Origin: Deroplatys truncata
Taxonomy: Eukaryota; Arthropoda; Insecta; Mantodea; Mantidae
Direction: 5' to 3'
Length of the DNA: 64,000 bases
NCBI GenBank assembly: GCA_030765065.1
Contig: CM060983.1
Coordinates: 51,086,067-51,150,066, forward strand
Positions 12,948-58,891 of this stretch are shown here, in pieces. The translations under genes were made by a program, and so were the position numbers. Position 1 is the first letter of the stretch, and each line of letters opens with the position of its first letter. Below the pieces are notes generated by a model that searched no databases, was not told the origin of the DNA, and saw only the letters and a list, made by a program, of their open reading frames with translations.

Positions 12948-13735
12948 CAATTTTTACTTTCTCCACTACGTATAGTAAGTAGGGGAAGTATTGTATTCCA
13001 CCCAAAAATTCGATACCGAGATTTCACCGGAAATATATGTTTTGAGACCCCCTGAATCCAAAAAATAAGTATTTTTGGAAACATGTCCGTGTGTGTGTGT
13101 CTGTGAACAGCATAACTCAGAAACGAACAGTCAGATAAACACCAAACTTGGTATTTAGGTTCAGTATCTTCCAGAGATGTGACACGAAGGTTTTCAAGAA
13201 AGTCTCCCCACCCCAGGTAATCCTTTACATGGAACATTTTTCCAAAATTTTCTCAAAAATAGCTCTAACGATTTTCATTAAAATATCATATATTTAATAT
13301 ACCTTCATGACAAATAAAATGTATATCTTGAATTTTCTGGGAATGTCTCCAAAAGTATTCTTCATTGTGAACCATAACAGATAGACAAAATTTTACTACA
13401 CAAAATTGTAGATCGCGTTAAAATACATAATTTATGTCATTACATTTTTTTTGAGTGAACCATTTTCGAGATATTGCTTGTTATTCGCTTAAATTTTCCA
13501 ATACTTATAATTTTTCTCAAATTCGTTATTCATCTTTTTTGTCCTGGTAATGCAAAGAGAATGGAATCCTCCACATAGCAACCAGCTCTTAAACGCTTAA
13601 ACCCAATTCCCCTTGCAATTACAAGAAAGCTAGCAATAAGATTAACATGAAGCATATGGAGAATAAGCGTTTGTAAAAATAGGTTGTACAAGAGTAGAGA
13701 AAGTCATGTGAGTGTAACATCAGAAATTTTTTTGG
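12948..13735 (-). mobile_element. HINE-like element, young copy, minus orientation
   Basis: Starts TTTTTACTTTCTCCACTACG, contains the family hairpin, the GTGTGTGTGTCTGTGAACAG tract, GGTATTTAGGTTCAGTATCT, and ends GTCATGTGAGTGTAACATCA. It lacks one internal block that full copies have. Non-coding. Confidence 0.85.
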
Positions 13736-13848
13736 ATTCAGGTGGTCTCAAAACATATATTTCCAGTGAAATCTCGGTATCCAAATTTTTGGGTGGAATA
13801 CAATACTTCCCCTACTTACTATACGTAGTAGAGGAAGTAAAAATTTAA
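13736..13848 (+). mobile_element. HINE-like 3' end fragment in inverted orientation
   Basis: TTGGATTCAGGTGGTCTC to GTAGTAGAGGAAGTAAAAA is the 3' terminal 110 bp of the same family in the opposite orientation, directly abutting the copy at 12948-13735. The pair could be mistaken for one element with long inverted repeats. Other copies show that the family has no such repeats, so I call it a second fragment. Confidence 0.75.
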
Positions 13849-15410
13849 AAGTATCGAAAACGTATTGAATGCTTATCTCAGAGTATTAGACATATTTCGA
13901 TACCACCGTGTATCCAGAGTATAAACAGTATCAAGGGCCCATCCCTATATTATACTTTTTAAATAGTAAGTCGTCATTCTTTTGTTTCCCGTGATGTCAG
14001 CAAAAGAGCATGGAATTCTATAGGCAGCATATTGTGTCCCGCTTACATTTGACTGTCGCCTTATTCTCCTGTATCCTCTTTACTGCGAAATGTCCTTTGG
14101 AAAGGACAACGCTCTCTGTCTCCTTTATTTTTTATAATATTAATATAAATTTTGAGAGCTCACATGATCAGGAATGCAGCGGCAGAGAAGGGTATACCTA
14201 TGTATTTAACGCAGTAATAACGCGAATGGAGCCGTGGGTCCTGCCAATTTAGGCAGAACATATACAACATTCCCGTCCTAATCTTAATTGTTACAGATGT
14301 GTACAGGGGATTAGCGTAGCGTAACCTGGAGGCCGCAGTTGGCTTAGACACAACATAGGAAAACAATAGTCACCTTAGGTATCGCATTCCTTATCAACAT
14401 GTAAACTAACCGGGGGTACCTAAGGGTTGGCAATACTGTTTGTACGATAAACACTTACTGCCATACACGGTCCGCTCCGGCGTGGAGTGTATGTAATTAC
14501 CGTACAGTCACGCAACCCCACGCACACTGCAGCGCTTTACCGCAGTGCTTTACGTCTGCATGTCACGTTACACGCCTGGCACATGCTGGACACAAAGTAA
14601 ACCACGCTCTTAACCTAAACCTGAGACAGATAACAAAGTGAATGGGAAGAAATTATTTTCTATAATCCTTCCGGCCCGAGAATGGGTCCTAAGATAAACA
14701 ATGCACGTGGTATCACTCCGCGATTTCACGAACTAATGGTGAGCCTTCCTCTGTCTTGCCTTCCTCATCAATTGTTCAGCTATTTTCTTTTGGGAGCTCA
14801 AGGAATTACCATCGTTGGCAATAATTGTATATACAGAGAGAGGGAGAGAGAGTCAAAAAACTACGAACCGGCTGCGTGGTGATTTTCCTGTCCGCGTCCT
14901 CGGCGCTCGTTGCCGTCCTACCAACTTTATGAAAGGAGATGTTGAAACTGGCCACCGTCGTTGTCTATACATTTTTGGCATCTCTTTAGGAAACTATCCA
15001 TCACTCGCCGTAGTTAACGTTGAGAAATGTTGGCAATTTGCTGGTGATGTTTTGTTTTAATTCTTCCAGGGTGTGTGAGTTTGTCTTGTACACTTTATTT
15101 TAACCTACCCCAGAGATAGAAATAGCAGGAAGTTAGGTCGGGAGACAGAGGGGCCACAAATCTGTACTAATAATTCTGCCCTCAAACACACTTTCATAAA
15201 GTAGTTCAGTAAAGCCTTTAAAAGTAGTTTTAAAAATGTCCGCGCCTTTCTATGATAGCTGCAGACGGCAACGAGCGCCGGGGACGCGGACAGGAAAAAC
15301 ACCAGGCAACCGGTTCGTAGTCTTTTGGTTCTTCCTATATATATTGCTGTATTTCACTGCACCAGCACTGAGTATTAAAGAAATACATATCCCTATACTT
15401 GCTAAAACCA
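13849..15410. other. No gene recognised
   Basis: Mixed composition without a convincing ORF. Open frames of 60-82 codons show no domain. A short GA-rich tract lies near 14835-14855. No SINE boxes or transposon ends were recognised. Confidence 0.4.
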
Positions 15411-15640
15411 AGCAGGATGGTTCAGGCGACGTCTATGGCCGGTATTTGGGAGGTCCTAGGTTCGATCCCCGACGACTGCCCACTCTGACCAATGAGTTTT
15501 TACGTGGTTTCTCCGGGTCGATGAGTGGTTTCTTTTCTACCACGATTTCCCGTCCGTCGTTTCCCTTTCATTCCGTTTCCCTTTCATCTTTCACGTGTGC
15601 TTCTAGGTCTGATGATGTATGGCGGTGCCAGACAGATGGC
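15411..15640 (+). mobile_element. SINE-B copy (tRNA-derived)
   Basis: The head reads AGGATGGTTCAGGCGAC, then the B box GGTTCGATCCC at 15459-15469 matches the pol III consensus GGTTCRANNCC. Downstream, a GGTTTCTCCGGGTCGATGAG block and a pyrimidine-rich stretch ending CTTTCATCTTTCACG are shared with the copy at 40640. The A box is degraded. Confidence 0.75.
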
Positions 15641-15849
15641 GCTGAATGTACGTTCACCGGAAAGAATACTCCCCGTGGGCACCAGAGGGCTGACCGACTG
15701 TTGGGTCTTTCATTGCCCTCTCTCGGCAGCGAGCTTGGAAATGTTAATAACTTCCGCGCGTCCCTGTGGCCTGTCTGCCTACGGCATTTAACCTCTTATG
15801 TGCTACTTTCACTTCATCCCTTCCTTCTGGGTGGTGAAGGAAATCTCTC

Positions 15850-16340
15850 TACAATAGATCTATGTACGCTGCGGTGCCGAGAAGTCCCACTCTGTTGAAG
15901 AACCTATACCGTATCCAGATGTATTTTCTGAAGCGAATTCTGCAAATGGGGGAATTACCAAATGAAAATTGTGGGATTCTTAAATAATTCGGCTTATACA
16001 ATGAAATCATACATCTAAAAGTAAGGGCAGTTAAACACTGGTTACTCATAGTACGGGGAGATCGACCACCTGTACGCGCAGTGTGTTTCAGGAGCAAGTA
16101 CAGGAAGGGTGGGATACGTGTTGGGAAACGAAATTGCGCAGGGGCTTAGGAGTTGGAATGGTACTTTTGGCTACAGGGGAGGGACATAGGACTTAGCGGA
16201 TAGAAGATAATTCAGAGACGACTACGGATATTGACGACAGAATTAGAATCACAATTTACGGTTCGATCGAGAGAAGGTCGCCCAGGTTTACCTGAGTGGG
16301 ATGTTAATCGCCACAATTCCTAGCCACAAATGTGGCTTTA
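15850..16340 (+). pseudogene. LINE ORF2 thumb-region fragment
   Basis: The plus-strand reading LLKNLYRIQMYFLKRILQMG and, after an in-frame stop, VRAVKHWLLIVRGD matches the thumb region after the reverse transcriptase palm of many LINEs. There the RRFLRRILG and RAIKYWLKI type motifs occur. Further on, a QRRLRILTTELESQF-like reading appears in another frame. With the CPLC end at 16784 it is the 3' coding half of one LINE, broken by stops and by an unrelated block between 16345 and 16660. Confidence 0.6.
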
Positions 16341-16937: not shown

Positions 16938-17792
16938 TTTTACTTTCTCTACTACGTAAAGTAAGTAGGGGAAGTATTGTATTGCACCCAAAAATTCGAT
17001 ACCGAGATTTAACCGGAAATACATGTTTTGAGACCCCCTGAATTCAAAAAAAGCATTTTTGGAAACATGTCCGTGTAGGTGTGTGTCTGTGTGCGTGTCT
17101 GTGAACAGCATAACTCAGAAACGAACAGTCGGCTAAACACCAAACTTGGTATTTAGGTTCAGTATTTTCCAGAGATGCGACACACAGGTTTTCAAGAAAA
17201 TCCCCCCAACCCAGATTACCCTTTACATGGAACATTTTCGAAAATTTTAATTTTCTCAAAAATGACCATAACAATTTTGATTAAAATATCCTATGTTTAA
17301 TATATTTTTATGACAAATGAAATGTATATCTCGAATTTTCTGGGAATGTCTCCAAAAGTATTCTTCATTGTGAACGACTTTTGCATAATTGGTAAACCAT
17401 AAGAGATAGACAAAATTTTACTACACAAAAATGTAGATCGCGTTAAAATACACAATTTATGTCATATACGTTTGTTTTGTTGGGTGAACCATTTTCGAGA
17501 TATTGCTTGTCATTCCCTTATAGTTTCCAATACTTATACTTTTTCTCAAATTCGTTATTAATTTTTTTTTGTCTTGGTAATGCAAAGAGAATGGAATACC
17601 CCACATTGCAACCACCTCTTAAAATATTTGACTATCGCTTAAAGCCTACCAATTCCCCTTGCATCTACAAGAAAATTAGCAATAAGATTAACATCTCGAT
17701 TAATATGAAGCATATGGAGAACAAGCGTTTGTAAAAATAGTTTTGTACAAGAGTAGGGAAAGTCATGTGAGTGTAACACATCAGATTTTTTT
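16938..17792 (-). mobile_element. HINE-like element, young full copy
   Basis: Complete copy from TTTTACTTTCTCTACTACG to GTGAGTGTAACACATCAGAT. It contains the 3' hairpin region, the GT tract near 17076, the CAAACTTGGTATTTAGGTTC block at 17141, TTACTACACAAAAATGTAGA and the 5' subterminal motif AGTAGGGAAAGTC. It is inserted in or at the end of the LINE coding remnant. Confidence 0.9.
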
Positions 17793-18653: not shown

Positions 18654-18767
18654 TTACTTTCTCTATCATCAACCTACAGCAAGTAGAGAAAGTATTGCAC
18701 TCCACTCAACAATTCAATACCTAGATTGTACCAGAAATATAGAGCTTTGAGGCCCCTAAATAAAAAA
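18654..18767 (-). mobile_element. HINE-like 3' end, old copy, interrupted
   Basis: TTTACTTTCTCTATCATC to GAGGCCCCTAAATAAAA is the 3' terminal 110 bp of an old minus-oriented copy. It breaks in an A-run exactly where a young plus-oriented copy begins. Confidence 0.7.
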
Positions 18768-19512
18768 TCTGATGTGTTACACTCACATGACTTTCTCTAC
18801 TCTTGTACAAACTATTTTTACAAACGCTTATTCTCCATATGCTTCATGTTAATCGAGATGTTAATCTTATTGCTAATTTTCTTGTAGATGCAAGGGGAAT
18901 ATGGTAGGCTTTAAGCGATAATCAAATATTTTAAGAGCTGGTTGCTATGTGGAGTATTCCATTCACTTTCCATTACCAGGACATAAAAAATGAATAACGA
19001 ATTCGCATTTGAGAAAAAGTATAAGTATTGGAAAATTTAAGGGAATAACAAGCACCTAACAAAAAAAATTATATACATAAATAGTGTATTTTAACGCGAT
19101 GTACATTTTTTGTGTAGTAAAATTTTGTCTATCTCTTATGGTTTACCAGTCATGCAAAAGTCGTTCACAATGAAGAATACTTTTGGAGACATCCGCAGAA
19201 AATTCGAGATATGCATTTCATTTGTCATGAAAATATCTTAAACATATGATATTTTAATCAAAAACGTTAGTCATTTTTGAGAAAATTAAAATTTTCGAAA
19301 AATGTTCCATGTAAAGGGTAATCTGCGGTAGGGGGATTTTCTTGAAAACGTTCGTGTCGCATCTCTGGAAGATACTGAACCTAAATGCCAAGTTTGGTGT
19401 TTATCCGACTGTTGGTTTCTGAGTTATGCTGTTCACAGACACACAGGTACACACACGGAAATGTTTATAAAAATGCTTTTTTGGATTCAGGGGGTCTCAA
19501 AACATGTATTTT
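18768..19512 (+). mobile_element. HINE-like element, young copy, 3' truncated
   Basis: Begins AAAATCTGATGTGTTACAC and follows the family through CTTGTAGATGCAAGGGGAAT, GGTTTACCAGTCATGCAAAA and CGTGTCGCATCTCTGGAAGA. It stops at CTCAAAACATGTATTTTGAA, without the terminal hairpin. A Penelope-like fragment follows immediately. Confidence 0.9.
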
Positions 19513-25500: not shown

Positions 25501-26288
25501 ACTTCGTTTTAATTCAGACAAACCTTTTAGCTACGTTTAGAGATGGGACCTCAATACTGTCGATATCTCGATACTTGGTGGTATCGAAGACGTCTGACAT
25601 TTCGGGATGCTTTTCAGTTTTTAAGTTTTGCATCACTGAAAGTTGTTGTGTTTAACTATATGTTAGATAGGGAATTAAAGGTATCGACACTCCACGTGTT
25701 GACTCGCAAGTGTCCCCAAAGAGTTGCTGGACTACATTCTTGATAGACCTTGAGTGCGTTTCTATGCAGCTTTCCACAGACTCTTATGTTAAAATCAAAA
25801 CATGCAAAACAATGAGGAAAGTAGTAGAGATAATCATGTAACACAGGGAGATAACCGAGTTGTGATTGAAGCTGATTTAACTGACGCACTAAATCACGTT
25901 TCTGCAATAGCCTGACTTGGTAACTCACTCTCAGCCATTACATTTATCTACTGCGGTGATTAACATCTGTGAGCAGAGCAGAAACAAATCAGAAGTTAAG
26001 ACGTAGAAATATTTGTTCTTTTCCTCCATCTCTTAATTTATGTTTACACAAGTTCAAACTAACTTTGTATTAAACATGTACATATATACTAATGTATGAG
26101 GGTTGCTATGTTTCTGAGTGTGTCATGGCTAATTACTTATTACCAGATGAAAAACAATATATATGTATACATGCTATGAAGAATAGTGTTGTAAATAGTA
26201 GTAGAATGGTGTAACACACACATTATTTTTAGTTGCTTAATCTTCATATAAAATACATATTAGTTTACGTTATTAAGATTACAGAATA
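25501..26288. other. No gene; single mariner-like end near 26095
   Basis: TATGAGGGTTGCTATGTTTC at 26095 resembles a mariner terminus, but no inverted partner is visible. A 90-codon minus-strand frame at 25656-25928 has no recognised domain. Otherwise unassigned. Confidence 0.3.
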
Positions 26289-27137
26289 AAAAAATCTGAT
26301 GTGTTACACTCACATGACTGTCTCTACTCTTGTACAAACTATTTTTACAAACGCTTATTCTCCATATGCTTCATGTTAATCGAGATGTTAATCTTATTGC
26401 TAATTTTCTTGTAGATGCAAGGGGAACTGCTAGGCTTTAAGCGATAGTCAAATATTTTAAGAGCTGGTTGCTATGTCGAGTATTCCATTCTCTTTGCATT
26501 ACCAGAACAAAAAAAATGAATAACGAATTTGAGAAAAAGTATAGGTATTGCAAAATTTAAGGGAATAACAAGCAATATCTCGAAAATGGTTCACCCAACA
26601 ACAAAAAATGTATATGACATAAATTGTGTATTTTAACGCGATGTACATTTTTGTGTAGTAAAATTTTGTCTATCTCTTATGGTTTACCAGTTATGCAAAA
26701 GTCGTTCACAATGAAGAATACTTTTGGAGACATTCCCAGAAAATTCGAGATATACATTTCATTTGTCATGAAAATATCTTAAACATGTGATATTTGAATC
26801 AAAATCGTTAGAGCCATTTTTGAGAAAATTAAAATTTTCGAAAAATGTTCCATCTAAAGGGTAGCCTGGGGTGGGGGGATTTTCTTGAAAACCATCGTGT
26901 CGCATCTCTGGAAGATACTGAACCTAAATACCAAGTTTTGTTTATCCGACTGTTCGTTTCTGAGTTATGCTGTTCAGAGACAGACAGACACACACACACA
27001 GAGACATGTTTCCAGAAATGCTTTTTTGGATTCAGGGGGTCTCAAAACATGTATTTCCTGTGAAATCTCCGTATCAAATTTGTGGGTGGAATGCAATACT
27101 TCCCCTACTTACTATATGTAGTATAGAAGGTAAAAAT
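26289..27137 (+). mobile_element. HINE-like element, young full copy
   Basis: Runs from AAAATCTGATGTGTTACACT to TATGTAGTATAGAAGGTAAAA. All family blocks are present in order, including AAAATGAATAACGAATTTGA, GACATTCCCAGAAAATTCGA, GGTGGGGGGATTTTCTTGAA, the ACACACACACAGAGACATG tract and GGTGGAATGCAATACTTCCC. It abuts an A-run on each side with no clear duplication. Confidence 0.9.
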
Positions 27138-28976: not shown

Positions 28977-29260
28977 CTAAAAATCTGATGTGTTACACTC
29001 ACATGACTTTCTCTACTCTTGTACAAACTATATTTACAAACGCTTATTCTCCATCTACTACATGTTAATCGAGATAAACGTTTGCAGACTCCATGTTATT
29101 GCTAATTTTCTTGTAGATATAAGGGGAATGTATATTTACAAGGGCAATATAGAAATACAGTAGCCTTTAAGCATAGACATTACTCTTAATAGTTGGTGCT
29201 ATGTGCAGCACCATTCTCTTTGCCACAGATTAATACTCTTTGCATATCCAAGACAAAAAA
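28977..29260 (+). mobile_element. HINE-like element, 5' piece of a young variant
   Basis: Starts AAAATCTGATGTGTTACACT in the A-run of an older copy and carries a subfamily-specific insert (TACAAGGGCAATATAGAAAT). It stops in the A-run at 29255-29262, where the next copy starts. The remainder does not reappear beyond that copy. Confidence 0.8.
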
Positions 29261-30152
29261 AATCTGATGTGTTACACTCACCTGACTTTCTCTACTCTTG
29301 TACAAGCTATTTTTACAAACGCTTATTCTCCATCTACTTCATGTTAATCGAGATAAACATTTGCAGACTCTATCTTATTGCTAAGTTTCTTGTAGATGTA
29401 AGGGGAATATATATTTACAAGAGCAATATAGAAATACAGTAGCTGTTAAGCACACACATATCTCTTAATAGCTGGTTGCTAGGTGCAGCACCATTCCCTT
29501 TGCCACAGAGTAATACTCTTTGCATATCAAAGACAAAAAAATGAATAACGAATTCCCATTTGAGAAAATAAGTATTGAAAAATTTAAGAGAATAACAAGT
29601 AATATCTCGAAAATGGTTCACTCAACAAAAAAATGTATATGACAAATTGTGTATTGTAACGCGATCTACATTTTTTGTGTAGTAAAATGTTGTCTGTCTC
29701 GTATGGTTTACCAGTTATGCAAAAGTCGTTCACAATGAAGAATACTTTTGGAGATATTCCCAGAAAATTCAAGATATACATTTTATTTGCCATGAAAATA
29801 TCTTAAACATATGATATTTTAATCAAAATCATTAGAGCCATTATTGAGAAAATTAAAATTTTCCAAAAATCTTCCATGTAAAGGGTAGTCTGTGGTGGGG
29901 AGATTTTCTTGAAAAGCTTTGTGTCGCATCTCTGGAAGATACTGAGCCTGAATATCAAGTTTGGTGTTTATCCGACTGTTCCTTTCTGAGTTATGCTGTT
30001 CACAGACAGACACACATACGACATGTTTCTAAAAATGCTTTTTTTTGGTTTCAGGCACTCTCAAAACATGTATTTCGGTGAAATCTCAATATCGAATTTT
30101 TGGAAGGAATGCAATAATTTTTCTACCCATTATGTATTAGGTAAAAAAGTAC
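29261..30152 (+). mobile_element. HINE-like element, young variant full copy
   Basis: Full-length sister of the preceding piece, sharing the insert TACAAGAGCAATATAGAAAT. It runs through CGTTCACAATGAAGAATAC, AGTCTGTGGTGGGGAGATTT and the weak CA tract at 30006, and ends at GTATTAGGTAAAAAAGT with a degenerate 3' hairpin. Confidence 0.85.
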
Positions 30153-30486
30153 AAATTCTACCTGGAAATTTAACGGATGAAAATTCTCATTTTTAACATG
30201 TAGACACTTAACATTTTAACATTATACACTTTGTGTTTTGCCGTTTTTCAAGATTTTCATTTCTGTCATGTGTGATGTTTGCAAAACTGCTTTATAGACA
30301 TTATAGAAATGTTTTAAGACAGTACTGAATAAAGACGCCGATATTTAATTTAAATATTTCATCAAATAAAGATGATTTTGTGAAGATCAGGAAAACATGG
30401 CTATGGCATTTTTTTCCGGTGAGAGAAAAGAATTTACACCGCAATTTCATGTATTATTCAAAACAATCTGCTTTACTAAATGCATT
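30153..30486. other. No gene recognised
   Basis: AT-rich spacer between two HINE-like copies, with no ORF above chance length. Confidence 0.4.
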
Positions 30487-32465: not shown

Positions 32466-33794
32466 TACCTTTTTACTTACTCTATTACCAACTAATATTC
32501 GATACCAGGATTTTACCGGAAATACACGTTTTGAGACTGCCTGAATAAAAAAAGCACTTTTTAGAAAAAAGACAAGTGTGTGTGTGTGTGTGTGCCTGAA
32601 TAGCATAACTCAAAAACAAATTGTTGGATAAATGCTAAACTTGATATTTAAGTCACAATCTTCTAAGGATACAACATGAAGATTAAAAGAAATGACCCCC
32701 AAACACACTTTAGATGGAACATTTTTCGAAAATTTGATTTTTTCAAAAATGGCTCAAACGAGTGTGGTTAAAATTCCAAGCCTTTAAATATCTTGCGATA
32801 GCCTCTTAAGTCCTATTCATTCTAAAGTACTTTTGCATAATTGGCAAACCGTAAGAAATAGTCAAAATGTTACTACACAAAAAAAATCTGATGTGTTACA
32901 CTCACATGACTTTCTCTACTCTTGTACAAACTATTTTTACAAACGCTTATTCTCCATATGCTTCATGTTAATCGAGATATCGAGATGTCAATCTTATTGA
33001 TAATTTTCTTGTAGATGCAAGGGGAATATGGTAGCTTTTAAGCGATTGTCAAATATTTTAACGCTGGTTGCTATGCGGCGCATTCCATTCTCTTTGCATG
33101 TCCAGGACATAAAAAAATGAATAACGAATTTGAGAAAAAGTATAAGTATTGGAAAATTTAAGGGAATAACAAGCAATATCTCGCAAACGGTTCACTCAAC
33201 AAAAGAAATGTATATGACATAAGTTGTGTATTTTAACGCGATCTACATTTTTTGTGTAGTAAAATTTTGTCTATCTCTTATGGTTTACCAGTTATGCAAA
33301 AGTCGTTCACAATGAAGAATACTTTTGGAAACATTCCCAGAAAATTCGAGATATACATTTCATTTGTCATGACATTATCTTAAACATATGATATTTTCAT
33401 CAAAATCGTTAGAGCCATTTTTGAGAAAATTAAAATTTTCGAAAAATCTTCCATGTAAAGGGTAGTCTGGGGTGGGGGGATTTTCTTGAAAACCTTCGTG
33501 TCGCATCTCTGGAAGATACTGAACCTAAATACCAAGTTTGGTGCTTATCCGACTGTTCGTTTTTGAGTTATGCTGTTCACAGACACACACACAGACACAC
33601 ACACACACAGACACACACACGGACATGTTTCCAAAAATGCTTTTTTTTGGATTCAGGAGGTCTCAAAACATGTATTTCCAGTGAAATCTCGGTATCGAAT
33701 TTTTGGGTGGAATGCAATACTTCCCCTACTTACTATACGTAGTAGAGAAAGCAAAAATGCATACCTTGTTAAAGCACACAGTTTATGTCCTTTT
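32466..33794 (-). mobile_element. HINE-like element, old copy split by a young one
   Basis: The old minus copy runs from TTTTTACTTACTCTATTACC to TTACTACACAAAA. It is interrupted at that A-run by the young copy at 32882-33757 and resumes as AAATGCATACC...TTTATGTCC before being cut off by the next old copy. The interrupted motif, ACTACACAAAAAATGTAGATC in other copies, shows that insertion used the A-run. Confidence 0.8.
32882..33757 (+). mobile_element. HINE-like element, young full copy
   Basis: AAAATCTGATGTGTTACACT to GTAGTAGAGAAAGCAAAAA, with all family landmarks and an expanded CA tract at 33581-33621. Because the host is itself a family member, both boundaries are defined to within the A-run. 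This is the best copy for element termini. Confidence 0.95.
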
Positions 33795-34654
33795 TACTTT
33801 CTCAACCACATACGTAGTAGGTAGAGAAGGTATTGCATTCCACCCAAAAATTCGATACCGATATTTCACCGAAATACATGTTTTGAGGCCCCTTAAATAG
33901 AAAAAATTATTTTTAGAAAAAGTTCCATCTATGTGTGTACAACATAGCTCGAAAACGAAAAGTCGGATAAATACTAAACTAGGTATTTCAAAGACGCGAC
34001 ACGAAGATTTTCAATAACAATCCCTCCCCCCCAAACTACCCTTTATGTACATGGAACGTTTTTAGAATTTTTTTTATTTTCTTTAAAATGGCTCTAGCAA
34101 TTTTTGATTAAAATATCATATATTAGAGATATTTACATGCCAAATAAAATTTTATTTTGAAATTTCTGGGTATAGTCTGTGAATTCCTCTTTATTAGGAA
34201 GGAATTTTGCGTAATCTTGCGTTAAGGGATAGACCAAAACGTACCACACAGAAAATTCTCTCTTTAAAACACACAATTTTTCACATACCTTTTTTGTGGC
34301 ATCAGCCATTTTCGAGGTATCCGTTATTAATGGTTCGAGTTGTTCAATACTTTGTCATTCTTTTAGAGTCCCATCGATTTTCAGTTGTTTCTCGTGATTC
34401 CATGGAAACATTATGGAATTTTAAGACCAGCGTATAGCGTCCAGTTCTTAAAACATTTGACTATCGCTGTTCCCTTTGTTTCTATAACGAAATGTTTAAT
34501 GTAGCTGTTTCTGCAAAGGTTTACTTGTATTAAAGTGTAGTACTTAGATAGAAAAATAAGCTTTAGTAAGAATAGTTTGTATACGTACTAATATACATAG
34601 GGAATACATGTGAATGCATCACACGTCAGTTTTTTTTTTTTTTTTTTTTTTTTT
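33795..34654 (-). mobile_element. HINE-like element, old full copy with poly-T end
   Basis: Starts TTTTTACTTTCTCAACCACA, has GTACAACATAGCTCGAAAAC, GGCTCTAGCAATTTTTGAT and CAGTTGTTTCTCGTGATTCC, and ends GTGAATGCATCACACGTCAG. A 25-bp T-run at 34630-34654 follows. Confidence 0.8.
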
Positions 34655-35774: not shown

Positions 35775-35857
35775 CCTAGTATGTAGAGGAAGTATTGTTG
35801 GTGTTTGATATTCCGATAAAAATGTTTTGAGGTTCCTTGGATCTAAAAGTAAGCTTT
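35775..35857 (-). mobile_element. HINE-like 3' end fragment, old
   Basis: AGTATGTAGAGGAAGTATTG to GAGGTTCCTTGGATCTAAAA is the 3' end of an old minus copy, cut by the young copy that begins in its T/A-rich stretch. Confidence 0.6.
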
Positions 35858-36729
35858 TTACTTTCTCTACTACTATATTAAGTAGGGGAAGTATTGTATT
35901 CCACCCAAAAATTCGATACCGTGATTTCACCGGAAATATATATTTTGAGACACCCTGAAACCAAAAAAAGCATTTTTGGAAACATGTCCGTGTGTGTGTC
36001 TGTGTGTGTGTCTTGTGTGTGTGTCTGTGAACAGCATAACTCAGAAACGAACAGTCGGATAAACACTAAACTTGTTATTTAGGTTCAGTATCTTCCAAGG
36101 ATGCGACACGAAGGTTTTCAAGAAAATCCCCCCACCCCAGAGGACCCTTTACATGGAAGATTTTTCGAAAATTTTAATTTTCTCAAAAATGGCTGTAACG
36201 ATTTTGATTAAAATATCATATGTTTAAGATATTTTTATGACAAATAAAATGTATATCTTGAATTTCCTGGGAATGTCTCCAAAAGTATTCTTTATTGTGA
36301 ACGACTTTTGCATAACTGGTAAACCATAAGAGATAGACTAAATTTTACTACACAAAAAATTTAGATAGCGTTAAAATACACAATTTATGTCATATACATT
36401 TTTTTACTTGAGTGAACCATTTTCGAGATATTGCTTGTTATTTCCTTAAATTTTCCAATACTTATACTTTTTCTCAAATTCGTTATTCAATTTTTATGTC
36501 CTGGATATGCAAACAGAATAGAATGCGCCACATAGCAACCAGCGCTTAAAAGATTTGACTATCGCTTATAACCTACCATGTTCCCCTTGCATCTACAAGA
36601 AAATTAGCAATAAGATTGACATTTTGATATCTCGATTAACATGAAGCATATGGAGAATAAACGTTTGTAAAAATAGTTTGTACAAGAGTAGAGAAAGTCA
36701 TGTGAGTGTAGCACATCAGATTTTTTTAC
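35858..36729 (-). mobile_element. HINE-like element, young full copy
   Basis: From TTTTTACTTTCTCTACTACT to GTGAGTGTAGCACATCAGAT, with the GT tract at 35989-36026, CAAGAAAATCCCCCCACCCC and CTTGCATCTACAAGAAAATT. It sits between fragments of old copies in the same orientation. Confidence 0.9.
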
Positions 36730-39130: not shown

Positions 39131-39147
39131 GTGCTTATTTTATATTT

Positions 39148-46190: not shown

Positions 46191-46284
46191 CGCATAGGCA
46201 CACACAAATTGTTGTATTACGTTTAATTAATAAGTATAGAATTGTCTCCATGCATCAGCTTCAATAACAGTGTTGAACTTTTAT

Positions 46285-47075
46285 TTTCTACCTATAGTAA
46301 GTAAGGAACCACTGTATTTCTCTAAAAAAATTGATATCCAGATTTCACCACAAACTCGTGTCTTGAGGCCCCATGATTAATAAACTCCACGAGCGTGTGT
46401 ATGTCTGCATGTGTCTGAACAGAATAACAAAAACGAAATGTCAGATAGATACCAAACTTGGTATCTATGTTCAGTATCCTTCAATGATTTAACACGAAGA
46501 TTTACAAGAAAATCTCTCACCCCAAAGTACCACTTAGATGGAACACTTTTCGCATTCTTTTATTTTCTCAAAACTAGCCCTAGCGAATTTGATTAAGGTA
46601 CTATATATTAAAGATACTTATATAACAAATAAAATGTATAACTTAAATTTTCTGGGAATAGCCCTTGAAGTCCCCTTCATTCGGAAGGATTGTTCTATAA
46701 TCTTGTATAACTGGTAAACGTTAAGCGATAGACGAAAACGTACTGCATAGAGAATGTTGATGTCTTTAAAACACACAATTAATTGAAATAAGCCTTTTTG
46801 TGGCATGCCAATTCCAGAATATGCATTATTCATATTTCAAATTGTCAGTACTTTGTCATTGTTTTCAACTCATATCGATTTCAGCTGTTTCTCGCGATTA
46901 CAGGGAAACAGTACGGAATTTTAAGGCCAACCAGGGTCCAGTTCTTAAACATTTGACTATCGCTGTTCCGTTTGTATCTATAACGACATGTGTAATGTAG
47001 CTATTTCTGAAAAATTTTCGTACGAATAGTTAATAAACGACAGAGAAGATTATATGAAAGTAGAACACCAGATTT
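46285..47075 (-). mobile_element. HINE-like element, old copy
   Basis: Starts near 46284 with TATTTTCTACCTATAGTAAG and ends with AGATTATATGAAAGTAGAAC near 47065. It includes CGTGTGTATGTCTGCATGTG, ACCAAACTTGGTATCTATGT and GCCCTTGAAGTCCCCTTCAT. Confidence 0.75.
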
Positions 47076-47076
47076 A

Positions 47077-48530
47077 TACTTTCTCTACTACGTGTAGTAA
47101 TTGGGGGAAGTACTGCATTCCAAAAAAGCATTTTTGGAAACACGCCCATGTGTCTGTATGAGTTTAGTATCTTCCAAGGATGCGACACGAAGGTTTTCAA
47201 GAAAATTCCCCACCCCAGACTATCCTTTAAATGAAACGTTTTTGGAAATTTTCGATTTTTTCAAAAATGGCTCTAACGATTTTGATTAAAATATCATACG
47301 TTTAAGATATTTTCATGCCAAATGAACTGTATATCTTGAATTTTCTGGGAATGTCCCCAAAGTCCTCTGCATTTTGAATGACTTTCGCATATGTTATAAA
47401 CTGTAAGAGAACGGCAAAATTGTACTACACAAATAATGTATACGTCGTTAAAATACACAATTTATGTCACACAAAACTTTTTGTGGAGTGAACCACTTCC
47501 GAGATATTCCTTGTTATTTGTTTGGATTTTTCAATACTTATACTTTTTCTCAAATGAGAATTCGTTATTCGTTTTTTTATGTCCTGGACATTCAAAGTGT
47601 CGCGGTCTTCGTGTTATCTTATTGCTGAGCGCCTGTTATTGTATTACTATTTTTAAATTTGGGTTCTTTGTCCTCCGGCTAGCTATTACTTCTCAGTCGA
47701 ACATATCTCTTAAACAGGGTGTGTAAACGGAAAGGAGTTTTTACTGAAAGATAACACTGATAAAGAATTTGTTTTTACACTTTTATTGCCGTCACACTTT
47801 ATTCATTTCACATAATTACTCTTGATACACACCGGACTGAAACTGTTATATTTTAGAATGTAACTATAACCACTTGTTTGCCGCACATATTAATTTGCGT
47901 ATTTCACATCTTTTAACTAACTTTACGACGCGAGAGATTCTGTTGGACTGAACGACGTGTAATGCGTGAATGATCCTGTTGAACTGGGCAATACTTGTCT
48001 CAGGCTTTAGCTTTTTATACTCCCTCACCCGATATGCCTAAAGATTATAATCCAGCTACTATTGGTTAATAAAACGCGCCAACATTAGCGTCTATTTTTA
48101 TATCCAATCAAAATTATGAACACATATGCTCTAGGGAAGAAATTCCCTCCATTTTTAAAGAAATGCGCGCTACTCTGACGTCATTTGCTTGCCTCTTCTA
48201 ATTAATAAACAACTCACCCCCTCGCTACATTGTTGCCCGCTCTTATTGCCAGTTTCAGTGAGGCCGTGTAAACTTATTTCCTAACAATGCTTATAATTAA
48301 CAAACATCTCAAATCAATGTCATACAATAATGCTTATTTACACTACAATCACTCTGACATTTACATTGTTGTGATATAAAATACTGCCACAAAAGAGAAT
48401 GGAATGCTTCACATAGCAACTAGCTCTTAAAAGATTCGATTGACAAGAAGTATACCGAGAATAAGGATTTGCAAAAATAGTTTGTGCAAGAGTAGAGAAA
48501 GTAATGTTAGTACAATACAGATTTATTTTT
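47077..48530 (-). mobile_element. HINE-like element split by a solo LTR
   Basis: The copy begins TTTCTCTACTACGTGTAGTA, breaks at GGACATTCAAAG (47597), resumes at AAAGAGAATGGAATGCTTCA (48392) and ends GTAGAGAAAGTAATGTTAGT. Removing the LTR and one AAAG restores the family order exactly. Confidence 0.85.
47598..48391 (-). mobile_element. Solo LTR (fossil retroelement), 794 bp
   Basis: TG...CA with a perfect 4-bp duplication AAAG (47594-47597 and 48392-48395). On the minus strand it begins TGTGGCAGTATTTTATATC. It is the closest relative of the LTR at 21223, sharing the TCATTTGCTTG, GGCGCGTTTTATTA-type promoter region and ATAGCTAGCCGGAGGACAAA near the end. It has only one or two of the 36-bp units that are expanded there. 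It is inserted in a HINE-like copy, and no internal region is attached. Confidence 0.9.
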
Positions 48531-49071: not shown

Positions 49072-49953
49072 CACACTGCCGTTTGTGAAAAGGTACCGGT
49101 TGCTGTTCAAAGTGTCCTCAATTCGCAGGAGGCGAGATCGGTTGTTGTAACCAATAGCGCCCCAAACCATCGCACCTGGTGTTTGTCGGCTATACCGCTC
49201 AACAATGCAGCCCTCCAGGTTGCGCTCACCACGTTACCGCCGGACGCGTATGCGGCCATCACTGTAGGGCACGTTGAAGCGGGACTCGTCCAAAAAGACT
49301 ACATTTTGCCGCTCAGCACGCCAGTGACGGCGTTCACGTGCCCATTGCAGTCGGAGGAGCTTGTAGTTTCTGGACAATTGAAGCCGACGTAATGGCAGGC
49401 ATGCAACCAGTCCGACCTGCAGCAGACGGCGACGAACCTTTGATGCAGACAAGTTCACACGTGTTGCAGTGCTCCAGCGTCGAGCCAACACTGTCGATGA
49501 AACTGTGCGGTCCGTTATGGCCATGCGGACAAGATGACGGTCATCCCCGCTCTTTGCTGCGTACGACCTTTATCTATTCACTGCTTCCACACACGGATCA
49601 CTGTCTTAGCAGCATCCCCTGTACGAGCCGAAATGTCACGGTATCTTCCCGGAGACCGCTCATTCTGCCCTCTTTGAACCCATTCACATGCCGATATGGC
49701 TCCCTTTGACGTCGACGAGGCATACTGGCATTCACTTTGTTTCCACCTTGTTTGACAGCTCTGCACTGACTACACTGGGCGCAACACTGACCTTGTCGGA
49801 CCGACACGAGAGGGCTCTACTCGGCCTACGTGTACCCCATCTCTCTGCAAACCTAATCACTTATTGCTTGCACACTCTTCTACACTTTCCCAAGTTTGGA
49901 GTTATTCGGGAAATTCTTTCTTGGTGTTGCAATTTTCACAAACGGCAGTGTAG
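49072..49953 (-). mobile_element. Defective Tc1-like element (882 bp) with TIRs
   Basis: Inverted termini share CACTGCCGTTTGTGAAAA and sit next to TA at both ends. On the minus strand the N-terminal helix-turn-helix region is readable (ANGFKEGRMSGLRED-like, 49598-49807). It is followed by RRLLQVGLVACLPLRRLQLS and NVVFLDESRFNVPYSDGRIR at 49234-49524, with the first catalytic Asp in FLDESRF. The frame continues as TPGAMVWGAIGYNNRSRLLR and LNSNRY and then joins the terminus directly. The second Asp and the Glu were therefore lost in one deletion. At least one frame change separates the N-terminal parts. Confidence 0.9.
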
Positions 49954-50069: not shown

Positions 50070-51880
50070 TTTACTTTCTTTACTACCTGCATAGTAGGTA
50101 GAGAAGGTATTGTATTCCACCCAAAGTTTTTATACGGATATTTCACCGGGAATACATGTCCATAAATCAAAAAATAATTAATGACGTCCTAGTGTGTCTG
50201 TGAGCAGCATTAACTCCAAAATGAAAAGCCACATAATTAGCAAACTTGAAATTTGAGTTCAGTATCTTTCAAGGATGCAACACGAAGAATTTTCAAGAAA
50301 ATTCCCCGCCCCAACATTTTCTTAAAAATGGCTGTAACGATTTTGTTTAAACTACAATATATTAAAGATATTTAGATGACAAACAAAATGTATATCTTGA
50401 ATTTTGATGCAGTAATTTGTATCACAAATTACTTTAATGTAAATAATGATTGTAATATGAATATGCATTTTTATGTGACATTGATTTGAGATGTTTCTTG
50501 ACTGTAATTATTGTTGATAAGTAAGTTTATACGACCTTACTGAAACTGTCAATAATAGCGCAATAATGCAGAGAGGGGGGTGAGCTGTTTATCATTATTG
50601 GAAACGAGGAAGTTACGTAATGTTGGCGCGTTTTTCCGTTTAGAACCTTCTGGAATGTTTCCCTAGAGCATATGTATTCATAATTTTCATTGGATATAAA
50701 AATAGACGCTAATGTTGGCGCGTTTTATTAGCCAATTGCAGTTCAGTTATAATCTTTAGGCGTATCTGGATGAAGGAGTATAAATAGGGTAGGTTAGAGG
50801 TAGCGTCATGTCAGTTCATCAAAAATCTGTGTACACTACACGTCGTCTTCAGTCAGTCAGTTCGTCATACATCGGATATAGATTCACAAGTTACGCGCAG
50901 CAGAATTATGAAAGATCTAAAATATGGTAAAGTTAATTATACAAAAGGTTGAAGTACGTTGATTAAAAGTGATCAGTAAGAAGTTATTATAACAGTTTTC
51001 AGTTTGGCGAGTGTTAAGATCAATGTATAAATGTGATAGTTAACGTGTTCGACAATAAATGTGTAAAACAAATTTCTTCATCAGTGTTATATTTGGATAA
51101 AAGATTCCTTTCCGTTTACACAACCCTGATCAAGAGACATGTTCGACTGATAAATAATAGCTAGCCGGAGGACAGTAAACAAAACTTAAAATTCTTTCAA
51201 ACAAAACTAATACTGCCGCAAATTGCTAACACCAGATGGAGCTACGAACCTAACAAAGAATGACGTCACAAGATGGTTTCACATGAAGTAAACACACATA
51301 CACAAACATTACAAGTAATAACATTATAAAGATTACACTCACAAATTGGCTACCACAACGTGGGGCTACAATTAATGTTAAATAAATATAACATTAATAC
51401 ACTCGCAATTTTCGGGGAGTAATTCTGGGAAGTCCTCTTCTTTGGATAGGAATTGTATACACTCTTGTACAAATGGTATGCGATAAGCGATAGACGAAAA
51501 CGTACCACACAAAAAAGTAGATCTTTTAAAACAAACAATTTATTTCAAATAAGTTTCTTTGTGGCATAAGCCGTTTCTGAGATATACGTTATCAAAGGTT
51601 CAAGTTGTTCGATACTTGGCGTTCTATTTTCAGTTGTTTCTCGCGATGTAATGGAAACAGTATGGAATTTTAAGGCCAGTATATGGCGTCCAGTTCTTAA
51701 GCATTTGGCTATCGCTGTTATCTTTGTATCCATAACGAAACTTGTAATGTAGCTATTTCTGCAAAGGCTTATTTGGATAAAAATGTAGTAGATAGAAAAT
51801 AAGCTCAGTAACAATAGCTTATATACCCTATAATAAACGATAGAAGGTAGAGAAATTCATGTGTGTGTATCATCAGAATG
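50070..51880 (-). mobile_element. HINE-like element, old copy split by a solo LTR
   Basis: Starts TTTACTTTCTTTACTACCTG with the 3' hairpin, passes GTGTGTCTGTGAGCAGCATT, and breaks at TATATCTTGAATTT (50404). It resumes at ATTTTCGGGGAGTAATTCTG (51408) and ends GAAATTCATGTGTGTGTATC near 51868. Confidence 0.85.
50405..51407 (+). mobile_element. Solo LTR (fossil retroelement), 1,003 bp
   Basis: TG...CA with a perfect 4-bp duplication ATTT (50401-50404 and 51408-51411). It begins TGATGCAGTAATTTGTATC. TATAAA (50779-50784) and AATAAA (51054-51059) are in the expected order. It shares ATAGCTAGCCGGAGGACA with the LTRs at 21223 and 47598 and, near its right end, an AAATTGGC...ACGTGGGGC motif with those at 10309 and 27782. 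It therefore links the two subgroups. No internal region is attached. Confidence 0.9.
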
Positions 51881-53178: not shown

Positions 53179-54590
53179 TTTTTACTTTCTCTACTAAGTA
53201 CAGAATAGGCAGGGAAGGTACATATTGCATTCCACCCAAAAACTAGATAGCGAGATTTCAACACAAATACATGTTTTGAGGCCTCCTGAATAAAAAAAAG
53301 TATTTTTTAGAAAAATGTCCACGTGTGTGTCTGTAAGCCTGCATAACTCAAAAACGAAAATTCGGATAAATACCAATCTTCGGTTTAGGTTTAGTACCTT
53401 CCAAAGATGCCACGTGAAGATTTTCAAGAAAATCCTCCATCCCAAACTATCCTTTAGAAGGAACATTTCTTGATCATTCTCTTGAAGTCCTGTCAGCATT
53501 CAGTTGTTTCTCGCGATTCCGTGGAAACAGTATGGAATTTTAAGGCAGCATATAGCGCCCAGTTGTTAAACATTTGACTATCGCTGTTCCCTTTGTGTCT
53601 ATAACGATATGTGTAATGTAGCTATTTCTGCAAAGTTTATTTGACTTATTAGTATATATAAAAAAAAATCTTGTGTGTTACACACACATGCCTTTCTCTA
53701 CTCTTGTACAAACTATTTTTACAAACGCTTATTCTCCATGATTCATGTTAATCAAGATGTTAATCTTATTGCTAATTTTCTTGTAGATGCAAGGGGAATT
53801 GGCAGGCTTTAAGCTATAGTCAAATATTTTAAGAGCTGGTTGTTATGTGGAGTATTCCATTCTCTTTGCATTACCAGGACAAAAATAAAAAAAATGAATA
53901 ACGAATTTCCATTTGAGAAAAAGTATAAGTATTCGAAAATTTAAAGGAATAACAAGCAATATCTCGGAAATGGTTTACTCAACAAAAAATGTATATGACA
54001 TAAATTGTGTATTTTAACGCGATCTTCATTTTTTGTATAGTAAATTTTTGTCTATCTCTTATGGTTTACCAGTTATGCAAAAGTTGTTCACAATGAAAAA
54101 TACTTTTGGAGACATTCCCAGAAAATTCGAGATATACATTTCATTTGTCATGAAAATATCTTAAACATATGACATTTTATTCAAAACCGTTAGAGCCATT
54201 TTTGAGAAAATAAAAATTTTCGAAAAATGTTCCATGTAAATCTAGGGCGGATGGATTTTCTTGAAAACCTTCGTGTCGCATCTCTGGAAGATACTGAACT
54301 CAAATACCAAGTTTGGTGTTTATTCGACTGTTCGTTTCTGAGTTATGCTGTTCACAGACACACACACACACACGGACATGTTTCCAAAAATGCTTTTATT
54401 TGATTCAGGGGGTCTCAAAACATGTATTTCTGGTGAAATTTTGGTATCGAATTTTTGGGTGGAATACAATACTTGCCCTACTTACTATACGTAGTAGAGA
54501 AAGTAATAAGCTTTAGCAAGAATAGCTTGTATACTCACTAATAAACGATAGAGGGTAGAGAAAGTCATGTGAATGTAACACATCAGCTTT
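53179..54590 (-). mobile_element. HINE-like element, old copy split by a young one
   Basis: The old part starts TTTTTACTTTCTCTACTAAG, has GTGTGTGTCTGTAAGCCTGC and CAGTTGTTTCTCGCGATTCC, and stops at an A-run (about 53662). It resumes at TAATAAGCTTTAGCAAGAAT (54512) and ends GTCATGTGAATGTAACACAT. Internal deletions exist before the break. Confidence 0.8.
53663..54512 (+). mobile_element. HINE-like element, young full copy
   Basis: AAATCTTGTGTGTTACACAC to TACGTAGTAGAGAAAGTAA. Family blocks are complete, with the CA tract at 54358-54373. The 3' hairpin CTACTTACTATACGTAGTAG is perfect at 54478-54497. Confidence 0.9.
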
Positions 54591-55450: not shown

Positions 55451-55499
55451 TGGCTTAAAATTTCACATGAGTGGCACATACAGGGGACTGTACCAGAAT

Positions 55500-57097: not shown

Positions 57098-57619
57098 TAA
57101 AATAATTATATTACAATACTCCCATGATAGATGTATGTTTTTCTTCAGTTTTTGTGTACGCAATCTCGATATTCTATTTGATAAAAGGTCGATCAGTTAT
57201 TTCTCGTGAGATCCTGGCTAATGCATGCACGCTTAATTTGTTTACAGCCAAATACAATTACCTAATGGAAGCTATTTTTTTGTGAATATTTATTGTGAAA
57301 TACACTAAGAGAATAGAAAAGTGTGCTTTTATATAATTAGTACCCACAATTCCTTCCTCCCTGGAATTGCCATAAAACACTAATGGAAGTCAAGTAAATA
57401 TTCGATTTTGGTTGTTTTTCTTTTCGTTTATTTCTTTTTCTCTGCTTTTAGCAGCTTGTTATAATAACCAAATGAATCTGTAGCTCTGCTCGCGGTATTA
57501 CGTCAAATGCAGAGATTCTCCTTTCTCTCTCTCTCTATTTCTCTTATGTATCATTCTCTCTCCTTCCATCGACCTCATCCTTTTCTCAACGTATAAAACT
57601 TCGCCTCTTGAATTAGGCC
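57098..57619. other. No gene; old HINE-like scrap and (CT)n
   Basis: CAGTTATTTCTCGTGAGATC near 57191 belongs to the HINE-like family. A (CT)n run lies at about 57523-57540. The rest is unassigned. Confidence 0.4.
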
Positions 57620-58042
57620 ACTGGGCTGTGGCTTCTAGAGTATGAATCGTACCATCTTTTCCTTGGTCTTACTGGGCTTCTCTGCCCTTTTGGAATATTA
57701 TCTCCAGATATCCTTACAGTTCTATCAGGTACCACTCTTGAAATATGATCATTTCATTCCTCTCTTGTTTTCTCTGTCTATTCCACAATTCTTTATTCTT
57801 CATTTATCCCCAATGTTTCATTCCTGTTTCTATCAGCTTTATTACCCCCACTTATTTTTTAGGTTTTTCATTTCTATTACTTCTATTAATTTCTTTGTCG
57901 TTACAGTATCTGCTCTAGTTTCGGATGAGTATGTTAATGTTAGTCTAATGACAATATTATAAATCCTTACCTTAGGTTCGGTATCTAGATATTTATTTTT
58001 CCATATAACATCGTTCAAGAAACCAACACATAGTTTGCATTT
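57620..58042 (-). pseudogene. LINE ORF2 C-terminal part, minus strand
   Basis: From 58030 downward the minus strand gives VGFLNDVIWKNKYLDTEPKV and RIYNIVIRLTLTYSSETRAD, then TKKLIEVIEMKNL. This is the thumb/connection region of a LINE polymerase (usual form WRNKYMxxExKVRIYKTxxRPxxTYxxET). After decayed frames, PKGQRSPVRPRKRWYDSY appears at about 57650-57735, the GKRxxGRPRKRWxD motif near many LINE C-termini. It lines up with the YADD fragment at 60185-60478 as the same element, separated by a HINE-like copy and a mariner. Confidence 0.75.
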
Positions 58043-58043
58043 A

Positions 58044-58891
58044 TTACTTTCTCTACTACGCATAGTAAGTAGGGGAAGTATTGTATTCCACCAAAAAATT
58101 CGATACCGAGATTTCACAGGAAATATATGTTTTGAGACCCCTGAATCCAAAAAAAAGCATTTTTGGAAACATGTCCGTGTGTGTGTCTGTCTGTGAAGAG
58201 CATAACTCAAAAACGAACAGTCTGATAAACACCAAACTTGGTATTTAGGTTCAGTATCTTCCAGAGATACGACACGAAGGTTTTCAAGAAAATCCCCCAC
58301 CCCAGATTACCCTTTACATGGAACATTTTTCGAAAATTTTAATTTTCTCAAAAATGGCTCTAACGATTTTGATTAAAATATCATATGTTTAAGATATTTT
58401 CATGATAAATGAAATGTATATCTCGAATTTTCTGGGAATGTCTCCAAAAGTATTCTTCATTGCGATCGACTTGTGCATAACTGGTAAACCATAAGAGATA
58501 GACAAAATGTTACTACGCAAAAAATGTAGATCGCGTTAAAATAAGCAATTTATGTCATATACATTTTTGTTTTTGTTGAGTGAGCCATTTTCGAGATATT
58601 GCTTGTTATTCCCTTAAATTTTCCAATACTTATACTTTTTCTCAAATTCGTTATTCATTTTTTTTGTCTGGTAATGCAAAGATAATGGAATACTCCACAT
58701 AGCAACCACGTCTTAAAACATTTGACTATCGCTTAAAGCCTACCATATTCCCCTTGCATCCACAAGAAAATTAGCAATAAGATTAACATCTCGATATCTC
58801 GATTAACATGAAGCATATGGAGAAAGCGTTTGTAAAAATAGTTAGTACAAGAGTAGAAAAAGTCATGTGAGTGCAACAGATCAGATTTTTT
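58044..58891 (-). mobile_element. HINE-like element, young full copy
   Basis: From TTACTTTCTCTACTACGCAT to GTGAGTGCAACAGATCAGAT, with the GT tract at about 58171-58192 and all standard blocks. It lies between the LINE C-terminal part and the mariner 3' end, against an A/T-run. Confidence 0.9.

What the first reader, a model, noticed from the sequence alone, without database searches (positions are those of the whole stretch)
12948..58891. A high-copy non-coding family with Helentron-like (HINE/DINE) architecture
Seen: more than twenty copies with the same order of blocks, one end TCTGATGTGTTACACTCACA, the other CTACTTACTATACGTAGTAG followed by AGAAAGTAAAA. A 12-bp motif, ACTTTCTCTACT, lies about 23 nt inside the first end and appears inverted (AGTAGAGAAAGT) overlapping the 3' hairpin at the other. 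The hairpin can form a 7-bp stem with one bulge. A GT/CA tract lies internally. Insertions fall in A/T runs with no clear duplication. Established: Helentrons and their derivatives (HINEs, Drosophila DINE-1) have asymmetric subterminal inverted repeats, a 3' hairpin, internal short repeats and TT target preference. Inference: this is such a family, possibly undescribed in this host, and very successful.
Basis: partly seen in the sequence, partly recalled or inferred. Interest (0 to 1): 0.75.

Follow-up and report, generated by a model that had tools for sequence, protein, structure and literature searches.

The report
Hyper-abundant Helentron family with intact master

Summary
The T-run/ACTTTCTCTACT hairpin end is the left (5') end, the TGTGAGTGTAACACATCAGA end the right (3') end. 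In that order the element has the published HINE layout. Paralogous empty sites show no duplication beyond Ts.

There are 313,191 left ends at up to 3 mismatches; the family covers about 12% of sampled DNA.

Extras: the family nests in its own T-run at position ~625 (18,329 left and 12,080 right exact junctions), and a chimera with two left ends and one right end was seen at eight different sites. It seems scarce on the largest contig, but a fresh sample alone does not reach significance. New member of a known kind.

The parts
16938..17792 (+). Near-complete HINE copy (94.9% to consensus), given in HINE orientation (left T-run end first)
16942..16975 (+). Left subTIR ACTTTCTCTACT (16942-16953) + loop + partial inverted repeat ending AGGGGAAGT: 14-bp left hairpin
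17752..17763 (+). Right subTIR (AGTAGGGAAAGT, 1 mismatch to the inverse of the left subTIR)
17765..17785 (+). Right-end hairpin ATGTG-AGTGTAA-CACAT plus CAGA; T-run follows (17786-17792)
12951..13733 (+). Near-complete HINE copy (87.3%)
18762..19511 (-). HINE copy lacking the left end (model 81-851, 92.4%)
26288..27136 (-). Complete HINE copy (95.6%)
29256..30155 (-). HINE copy with decayed left end (82.7%)
28979..29260 (-). HINE tail (model 624-850) directly after the right end of the previous copy; same arrangement as T-run-625 nesting, though the left half of the outer copy was not found
32880..33757 (-). Complete HINE copy (93.7%) nested in an older relative; empty sites 53986-54105 and 47339-47468
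33792..34635 (+). Older complete relative (model 2-850)
35855..36727 (+). Complete HINE copy (92.6%), followed head-to-tail by another left end at ~36728
35990..36029 (.). Internal GT microsatellite of the 35855 copy
46282..47075 (+). Older copy (model 10-848), joined head-to-tail to the next copy
47075..48523 (+). Copy starting directly at the previous right end (model 3-648, then 643-847 from 48392), interrupted between 47599 and 48392
53662..54509 (-). Complete HINE copy (92.6%) nested in an older relative; empty sites 51702-51872, 34452-34596, 30529-30664
58041..58891 (+). Complete HINE copy (94.2%)
2486..3209 (+). Older complete relative outside the stated interval, probably also nested at a T-run of a relative (weaker alignment)

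Best explanation
This is a HINE family: non-autonomous, non-coding derivatives of a Helentron, the endonuclease-bearing kind of rolling-circle transposon. A Helentron of the same genome, about 10 kb long, has one long open frame: tegument-type deubiquitinase, Rep (HUH), PIF1 helicase and a probable endonuclease. SHOWN: the HINE matches the Helentron's left ~650-730 bp and its right terminal ~40 bp, without the coding part; both share their ends; copies sit in T-rich stretches without a visible target duplication beyond Ts; a chimera with a HINE-derived left end and the Helentron right end lies at eight sites whose left border was seen. INFERRED: Rep nicks the left T-run/hairpin end, the helicase peels off one strand, replication stops at the right subTIR/hairpin, and the (probably circular) product enters another T-run, perhaps nicked by the endonuclease. 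HINEs borrow this machinery in trans. Because the element holds T-runs itself, it often inserts into its own copies, above all at position ~625; starting at the outermost left end and stopping at the first right end then yields elements with two left ends and one right end.
For: Layout equal to published DINE-1/HINE once polarity is reversed. Five empty sites for two copies, no TSD beyond Ts. Helentron unit between the family's ends, 99.2% identical over 7,005 bp between two loci with different flanks. HINE consensus against that Helentron: 94.2% over 2-648 at the left, 95% over the last 40 bp at the right. Pfam: Helitron_like_N 1.2e-17, PIF1 7e-29, DUF6570 4.9e-17, Herpes_teg_N 2.7e-9, Exo_endo_phos_2 4.1e-5. 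11 of 11 examined Helentrons have the same right end and a family left end. 7 of 11 carry one exact junction word between a HINE piece ending at 625 and the Helentron left end, two more (C8:76.4, C13:112.4) carry it with one letter changed upstream, two (C3:172.0, C10:14.4) lack it. Genome counts: left end at up to 3 mismatches 313,191; right-end 20-mer exact 163,192; right-to-left joins 8,424; T625 left 18,329 and right 12,080; reversed-pattern controls 0 in each. Old relatives agree best with the consensus at the two ends (0.82-0.83 over 1-90; 0.88 over 811-852, there only 5-6 old copies).
Against: The endonuclease match is below Pfam's curated cut-off (23.9 against 27.4 bits) and a PDB sequence search of this part found no endonuclease. 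The right hairpin is short (5 pairs, about -2.3 kcal/mol) and 2 of 19 right ends gave no hairpin. Left-hairpin covariation is weak (3 of 14 pairs change on both sides; 246 of 500 shuffles reach that), although paired cells exceed shuffles (4 of 500). T-runs at both borders hide the exact ends and any T-only duplication. No transposition was observed; head-to-tail joins can also come from insertion beside an older copy, and two adjacent units of one array are only 87% alike over 673 aligned bases. The excess of left over right T625 junctions (1.5-fold) is modest and the two patterns may differ in sensitivity.
Confidence: 0.95

Rival explanations
1. A MITE: a DDE-type cut-and-paste element with subterminal inverted repeats, inserting in T-runs with a TT duplication, as DINE-1 was once read.
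For: DINE-1 itself was called a MITE with a 2-bp TT duplication (passages of PMC2374699). T-runs make a TT duplication impossible to exclude here.
Against: The long element with these ends encodes Rep/PIF1; no DDE match was reported for its frame. The two ends are asymmetric and share only the 12-mer. Genome-wide DDE genes were not searched.
Confidence: 0.03
2. A canonical Helitron (Helitron1) derivative: TC...CTRR ends, insertion between A and T.
Against: No CTRR end; T-rich target, not AT; subTIRs and a left hairpin; the partner's frame carries extra domains of the Helentron kind.
Confidence: 0.02
3. Tandem and nested copies arose mainly by segmental duplication and satellite amplification, not by transposition, so the copy number overstates success.
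For: Regular arrays exist: monomers spaced ~3,408 bp at the start of C1, each of eight fetched holding a whole HINE. Some listed junctions also repeat at fixed spacings.
Against: Complete copies in the window and in the random loci differ (70-96% to consensus) and have different, T-rich flanks. The ~12% estimate comes from 40 random loci, 14 of which carry copies.
Confidence: 0.05

Closest known systems
DINE-1 / INE-1 (Drosophila)
   Same: subTIR at the left terminus, partial inverted repeat beside it, GTCY-type microsatellite, core, right subTIR followed by a stem-loop, TT/T-rich target (passages of PMC2374699 and PMC4067079).
   Different: Other sequence (12-mer ACTTTCTCTACT against ATACCCGTTACTC); no central tandem repeat block in the aligned window copies; far more copies than the 355-5,424 of the five visible rows of the DINE-1 table, though counted by another method.
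HINE-Mo (mite) and Cg_HINE (oyster)
   Same: Same modules, T-rich target, no TSD (passages of PMC4067079 and PMC7492417).
   Different: HINE-Mo right subTIR lies about 38-60 bp from the end; here 22 bp separate it from the right T-run. No satellite array inside the aligned copies.
Helentrons with a VTD (viral tegument-like) deubiquitinase domain
   Same: VTD-type domain plus RepHel plus C-terminal endonuclease, described in vertebrates, insects, cnidarians, molluscs (passages of PMC9741609).
   Different: Here a non-autonomous partner family with the same ends is mapped in the same genome; enzymatic activity untested.
FoHeli (Fusarium Helitron2) chimeras
   Same: Chimeras with several 5' ends and one 3' end; model of start at the outermost 5' end and stop at the first 3' end (passages of PMC5148889).
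   Different: Fungal elements there lack an endonuclease; the duplicated 5' piece is typically <200 bp there and ~625 bp here; here the chimera lies at eight or more sites.

Membership tests
HINE (non-autonomous Helentron) | 11-15 bp subterminal inverted repeats | tested here: met
   ACTTTCTCTACT left and AGTAGAGAAAGT right; 28 matches against 0.45 expected, alignment
[quoted passage not shown]
   14-pair left hairpin, 89.3% of cells paired in 18 copies (shuffled mean 87.0, 4 of 500 as high); slid versions 41-51%. Covariation weak.
[quoted passage not shown]
   5-bp ATGTG/CACAT hairpin in the consensus; 17 of 19 right ends gave some hairpin, often weak or differently paired; no covariation count made
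HINE (non-autonomous Helentron) | T-rich target, no target-site duplication | tested here: met
   Empty sites for two window copies (five reference sites) share only Ts at the border; T-only duplication cannot be excluded
HINE (non-autonomous Helentron) | No coding capacity, internal microsatellite | tested here: met
   Longest stop-free stretch of the 852-bp consensus 101 codons; microsatellite in the alignment
HINE (non-autonomous Helentron) | Autonomous Helentron with the same ends in the genome | tested here: met
   (autonomy itself is inferred from the open frame)
Helentron (autonomous) | Rep (HUH) and PIF1-type helicase in one protein | tested here: met
   Helitron_like_N 1.2e-17, PIF1 7e-29; PHEHM, YIIKY, GSAGVGKS seen in the frame (motif roles recalled)
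Helentron (autonomous) | C-terminal AP/EEP endonuclease domain | tested here: inconclusive
   Exo_endo_phos_2 E 4.1e-5 over 2-117 of 117, 23.9 bits against cut-off 27.4; GDFN and SDH motifs in the frame (recalled); no PDB endonuclease hit
Canonical Helitron | 5' TC and 3' CTRR, insertion between A and T | tested here: not met
   No CTRR at either border; T-rich borders
DDE transposon / MITE | Terminal inverted repeats with fixed TSD and a DDE enzyme | tested here: not met
   Asymmetric ends, no non-T duplication, partner encodes Rep/helicase

The most novel reading that the evidence does not exclude
A recently and perhaps still active Helentron with its HINE swarm offers the mechanism in natural records: more than ten thousand self-insertions at one T-run, resolved in the direction that one-ended rolling-circle replication predicts (outermost left start, first right stop). 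Moreover its insertions are kept off one whole 707-Mb contig (0 of 50 near-complete Helentron-type Rep matches; 0.9% against 14.6% HINE cover), as if transposition happens only in a cell type where that chromosome is closed, for instance a sex chromosome condensed in one germline.
Probability: 0.15. Interest if true: 0.78.

Novelty: new member of a known kind. Interest (0 to 1): 0.5.

Why it matters
To my knowledge (recall) no animal Helentron has been shown to move; what the endonuclease, the deubiquitinase and the T-run do is inferred. Here natural, near-identical long Helentrons with open frames, their ends, and a huge passenger family sit in one genome, so a donor/helper assay could use unaltered natural copies. 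The two-left-ends-one-right-end chimeras test the direction of replication. At about 12% of a 4.3-Gb genome (roughly 0.3-0.76 Gb) one HINE family is a large contributor to genome size, and its possible scarcity on one chromosome would give a handle on when and where it jumps.

Tried and rejected
Host identity: not found. Paper searches for stick insects and for a 4.29-Gb insect (listings only) gave no match; a guess of a stick insect rests on recall and is not used.

Is C16 an ancient insect X? PurA lies on C13, and MUN on C2 and C16, so these markers do not agree. That the genes lie on Drosophila element F is recalled; passages of PMC6894488 speak of element F as an ancient X but name none of them. 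A third marker (Ephrin) did not complete. Unresolved.

C16 scarcity, told in full: the idea came from the first 20 random loci (6 on C16). The pooled p of 0.00085 includes those loci. The second sample alone has 0 of 10 loci (0 of 15,000 bases) on C16 and 3 of 10 (1,548 of 15,000) elsewhere, one-sided p 0.10. Of 150 listed rows (152 matches), 50 have the near-complete Helentron-type range and 43 the Helitron-type range; 57 partial rows stay unclassed, 8 of them on C16, two of which end at 190 as the Helentron type does.

Copies elsewhere: exact 22-23-mers found nothing in viral contigs or genome contigs. Rfam: one tRNA at 63,531-63,602, outside the repeat hits.

Comparison T-runs: T-run 121 has 482 exact self-insertion junctions against 18,329 at T-run 625; T-run ~527 could not be counted. 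Part of the 625 excess may be copies of chimeras, not separate insertions. The spacer at head-to-tail joins (5 in 57 of the 100 listed, lengths typed by hand) does not separate insertion beside a copy from rolling-circle concatemers, since solo left borders also often have 5 Ts (5 of 10).

Full report
WHAT IS THERE. A consensus of eight near-complete copies (852 bp) finds 43 stretches covering 18,516 of 64,000 bases (28.9%). 22 reach the left end, 21 the right end, 11 both; 35 of 43 lie inside the stated interval. The reversed consensus finds none. Nine long window copies are 83-96% identical to the consensus; older relatives are about 68-84% identical to one young copy.

POLARITY AND ANATOMY. 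Read on the other strand the order is: T-run, ACTTTCTCTACT (left subTIR), short loop, AGTAAGTAGGGGAAGT (partial inverted repeat), conserved block, GT/GTCY microsatellite, core, AGTAGAGAAAGT (right subTIR), CATGTGAGTGTAACACATCAGA (5-bp hairpin), T-run. This is the order described for DINE-1 and HINEs: subTIR terminal or nearly so at the 5' end, inverted repeat next to it, GTCY-rich microsatellite, right subTIR clearly internal and followed by a stem-loop, TT or T-rich target (passages of PMC2374699; of PMC4067079; of PMC7492417). On the T-rich strand the left hairpin has 14 pairs; in 18 copies 89.3% of cells pair, against 87.0% in shuffles (4 of 500 as high) and 41-51% in slid versions, but true covariation is weak. 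The right hairpin is short; 2 of 19 right ends gave none. Across older relatives (37 alignments under 80%) agreement with the consensus is highest at the ends (0.82-0.83 at 1-90; 0.88 at 811-852, there only 5-6 old copies), with 0.81 in the core at 181-210. The consensus has no stop-free stretch above 101 codons.

TARGET. Two window copies (53662-54509 and 32880-33757) lie inside older relatives, and undisturbed relatives supply five empty sites. The flanks resume without duplication; only Ts are shared. Two further candidates (2486, 23271) gave weaker alignments, the 23271 right side doubtful. This agrees with the published HINE result that T number varies and no TSD is seen.

THE PARTNER. 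The window lies in a 4,289,915,091-base assembly of 818 contigs, C9:51086067-51150066. Helitron_like_N (PF14214) gives 152 matches there, 150 listed. One group matches positions 8-190 with E about 1e-26 and open frames up to 2,543 codons; 18 listed places have frames of at least 2,100 codons. Two were fetched whole (C9 at 66.07 Mb, C5 at 94.83 Mb). They agree at 99.2% over 7,005 bp and 97% over the left part, then part at a left end and at the right end, where flanks differ. The frame of 2,324 codons (stop to stop) holds Herpes_teg_N (2.7e-9), DUF6570 (4.9e-17), Helitron_like_N (1.2e-17), PIF1 (7e-29) and Exo_endo_phos_2 (4.1e-5, below its curated cut-off). VTD-type deubiquitinase domains in Helentrons are known (passages of PMC9741609); the PDB search on this part gives weak hits to a large tegument protein deneddylase (0.0033) and a deubiquitinating enzyme, 8adb (0.018). 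The HINE consensus matches the Helentron's left part at 94.2% (2-648) and its last 40 bp at 95%, by profile up to model position 732, so the HINE looks like an internal-deletion derivative; for its stretch of about 733-809 no match was found there. Ten Rep-region stretches are 97.7-99.9% identical to these copies, so the element moved recently (inference).

ELEVEN HELENTRONS COMPARED. With nine more pairs of ends, 11 of 11 have the right end ...GTAGAGAAAGTTATGTGAATGTAACACATCAGA plus Ts, and a family left end after two or more Ts. In 7 of 11 a HINE piece ending at model 625 is fused to the Helentron by the same exact junction word; C8:76.4 and C13:112.4 have it with one letter changed upstream; C3:172.0 and C10:14.4 lack it. 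In eight of these nine the chimera's own HINE-derived left end was in the fetched stretch, on different contigs or places and with different flanks; in C8:76.4 it lay beyond it. So the chimera spread as a unit with a HINE-derived left end and the Helentron right end. Four of 11 insertions (C5:94.8, C4:200.7, C3:172.0, C13:112.4) lie in T-run 625 of a HINE with HINE sequence on both sides; C8:76.4 shows this on the right side. A model of exactly this kind, start at the outermost 5' end and stop at the first 3' end, was proposed from Fusarium elements (passages of PMC5148889).

NUMBERS. Exact right-end 20-mers 163,192; left-end 27-mers at up to 3 mismatches 313,191; right end directly before a left end 8,424; left junctions at T-run 625 18,329, right junctions 12,080, T-run 121 junctions 482. 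Each reversed-pattern control was 0. Satellite arrays and chimeras are included in these counts. In 40 random loci (110 kb) the family covers 10,349 of 71,000 bases on other contigs and 346 of 39,000 on C16; the length-weighted estimate is 12.3% of the genome (bootstrap 7.0-17.7%) (the first 20 loci alone gave 11.4%). The window (28.9%) is richer than average. The C16 contrast is suggestive only: pooled p 0.00085 includes the loci that raised the idea, the second sample alone gives 0.10, and the Rep-match contrast (0 of 50 against 8 of 43, Fisher 0.0014) leaves 57 of 150 rows unclassed.

MECHANISM. Shown: shared ends, shared target, no visible TSD beyond Ts, an encoded Rep/helicase, a chimera at many sites. 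Inferred from the Helitron field: nick at the left, strand displacement, stop at the right hairpin, circle, insertion into a T-run. The excess of left over right T625 junctions points the expected way but is only 1.5-fold and rests on two patterns of similar but not equal sensitivity (8 and 7 flank words, 8 and 9 end words in window plus random loci).

NOVELTY. Features place it as a HINE family with its Helentron: new member of a known kind. The scale, the long-framed partner and the chimera record lift it above routine.

Noticed in passing
G000:C16 (707,006,351 bases); random loci L070-L075, L081-L090: The largest contig seems poor in the family: 1 of 16 loci (346 of 39,000 bases) against 13 of 24 loci (10,349 of 71,000) elsewhere, pooled p 0.00085, but the second sample alone gives p 0.10. 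Near-complete Helentron-type Rep rows: 0 of 50 on C16; Helitron-type rows: 8 of 43; 57 rows unclassed. C16 loci are not more tandem-repetitive (3,666 of 39,000 against 6,373 of 71,000 bases).
   Followed up: partly
L001-L008, G000:C1:19,025-49,309 (listing runs to ~122.8 kb): A satellite-like array with mostly ~3,408-bp spacing near the start of the contig, each of the eight fetched stretches holding a whole HINE copy; three compared stretches are 98.3-99.5% identical.
   Followed up: partly
L009-L028 (G000): A second, mostly decayed group of Helitron_like_N genes (E down to 1.5e-54) unlike the Helentron; ends not examined.
   Followed up: no
window 59069-60046, 62767-63327, 49234-49569: Remnants of mariner (Mos1-like) and Tc1-type transposases.
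   Followed up: no
window 39112-39609: 165-codon frame with a LacI/HTH-like match below the curated cut-off; unassigned, perhaps part of a transposase (guess).
   Followed up: no
window 3602-4608 and 6281-7780: Two tandem-repeat arrays (44/174-bp and 71-148-bp units, the latter GT-rich) without HINE hits.
   Followed up: no
Helentron frame, around a:3,466-4,440 in L039 coordinates: A block of charged ~21-residue repeats (such as KRNKEYMEQAREDEEYKESER) shifts in register between the two copies by multiples of 63 bp; it may explain most differences in frame length.
   Followed up: partly
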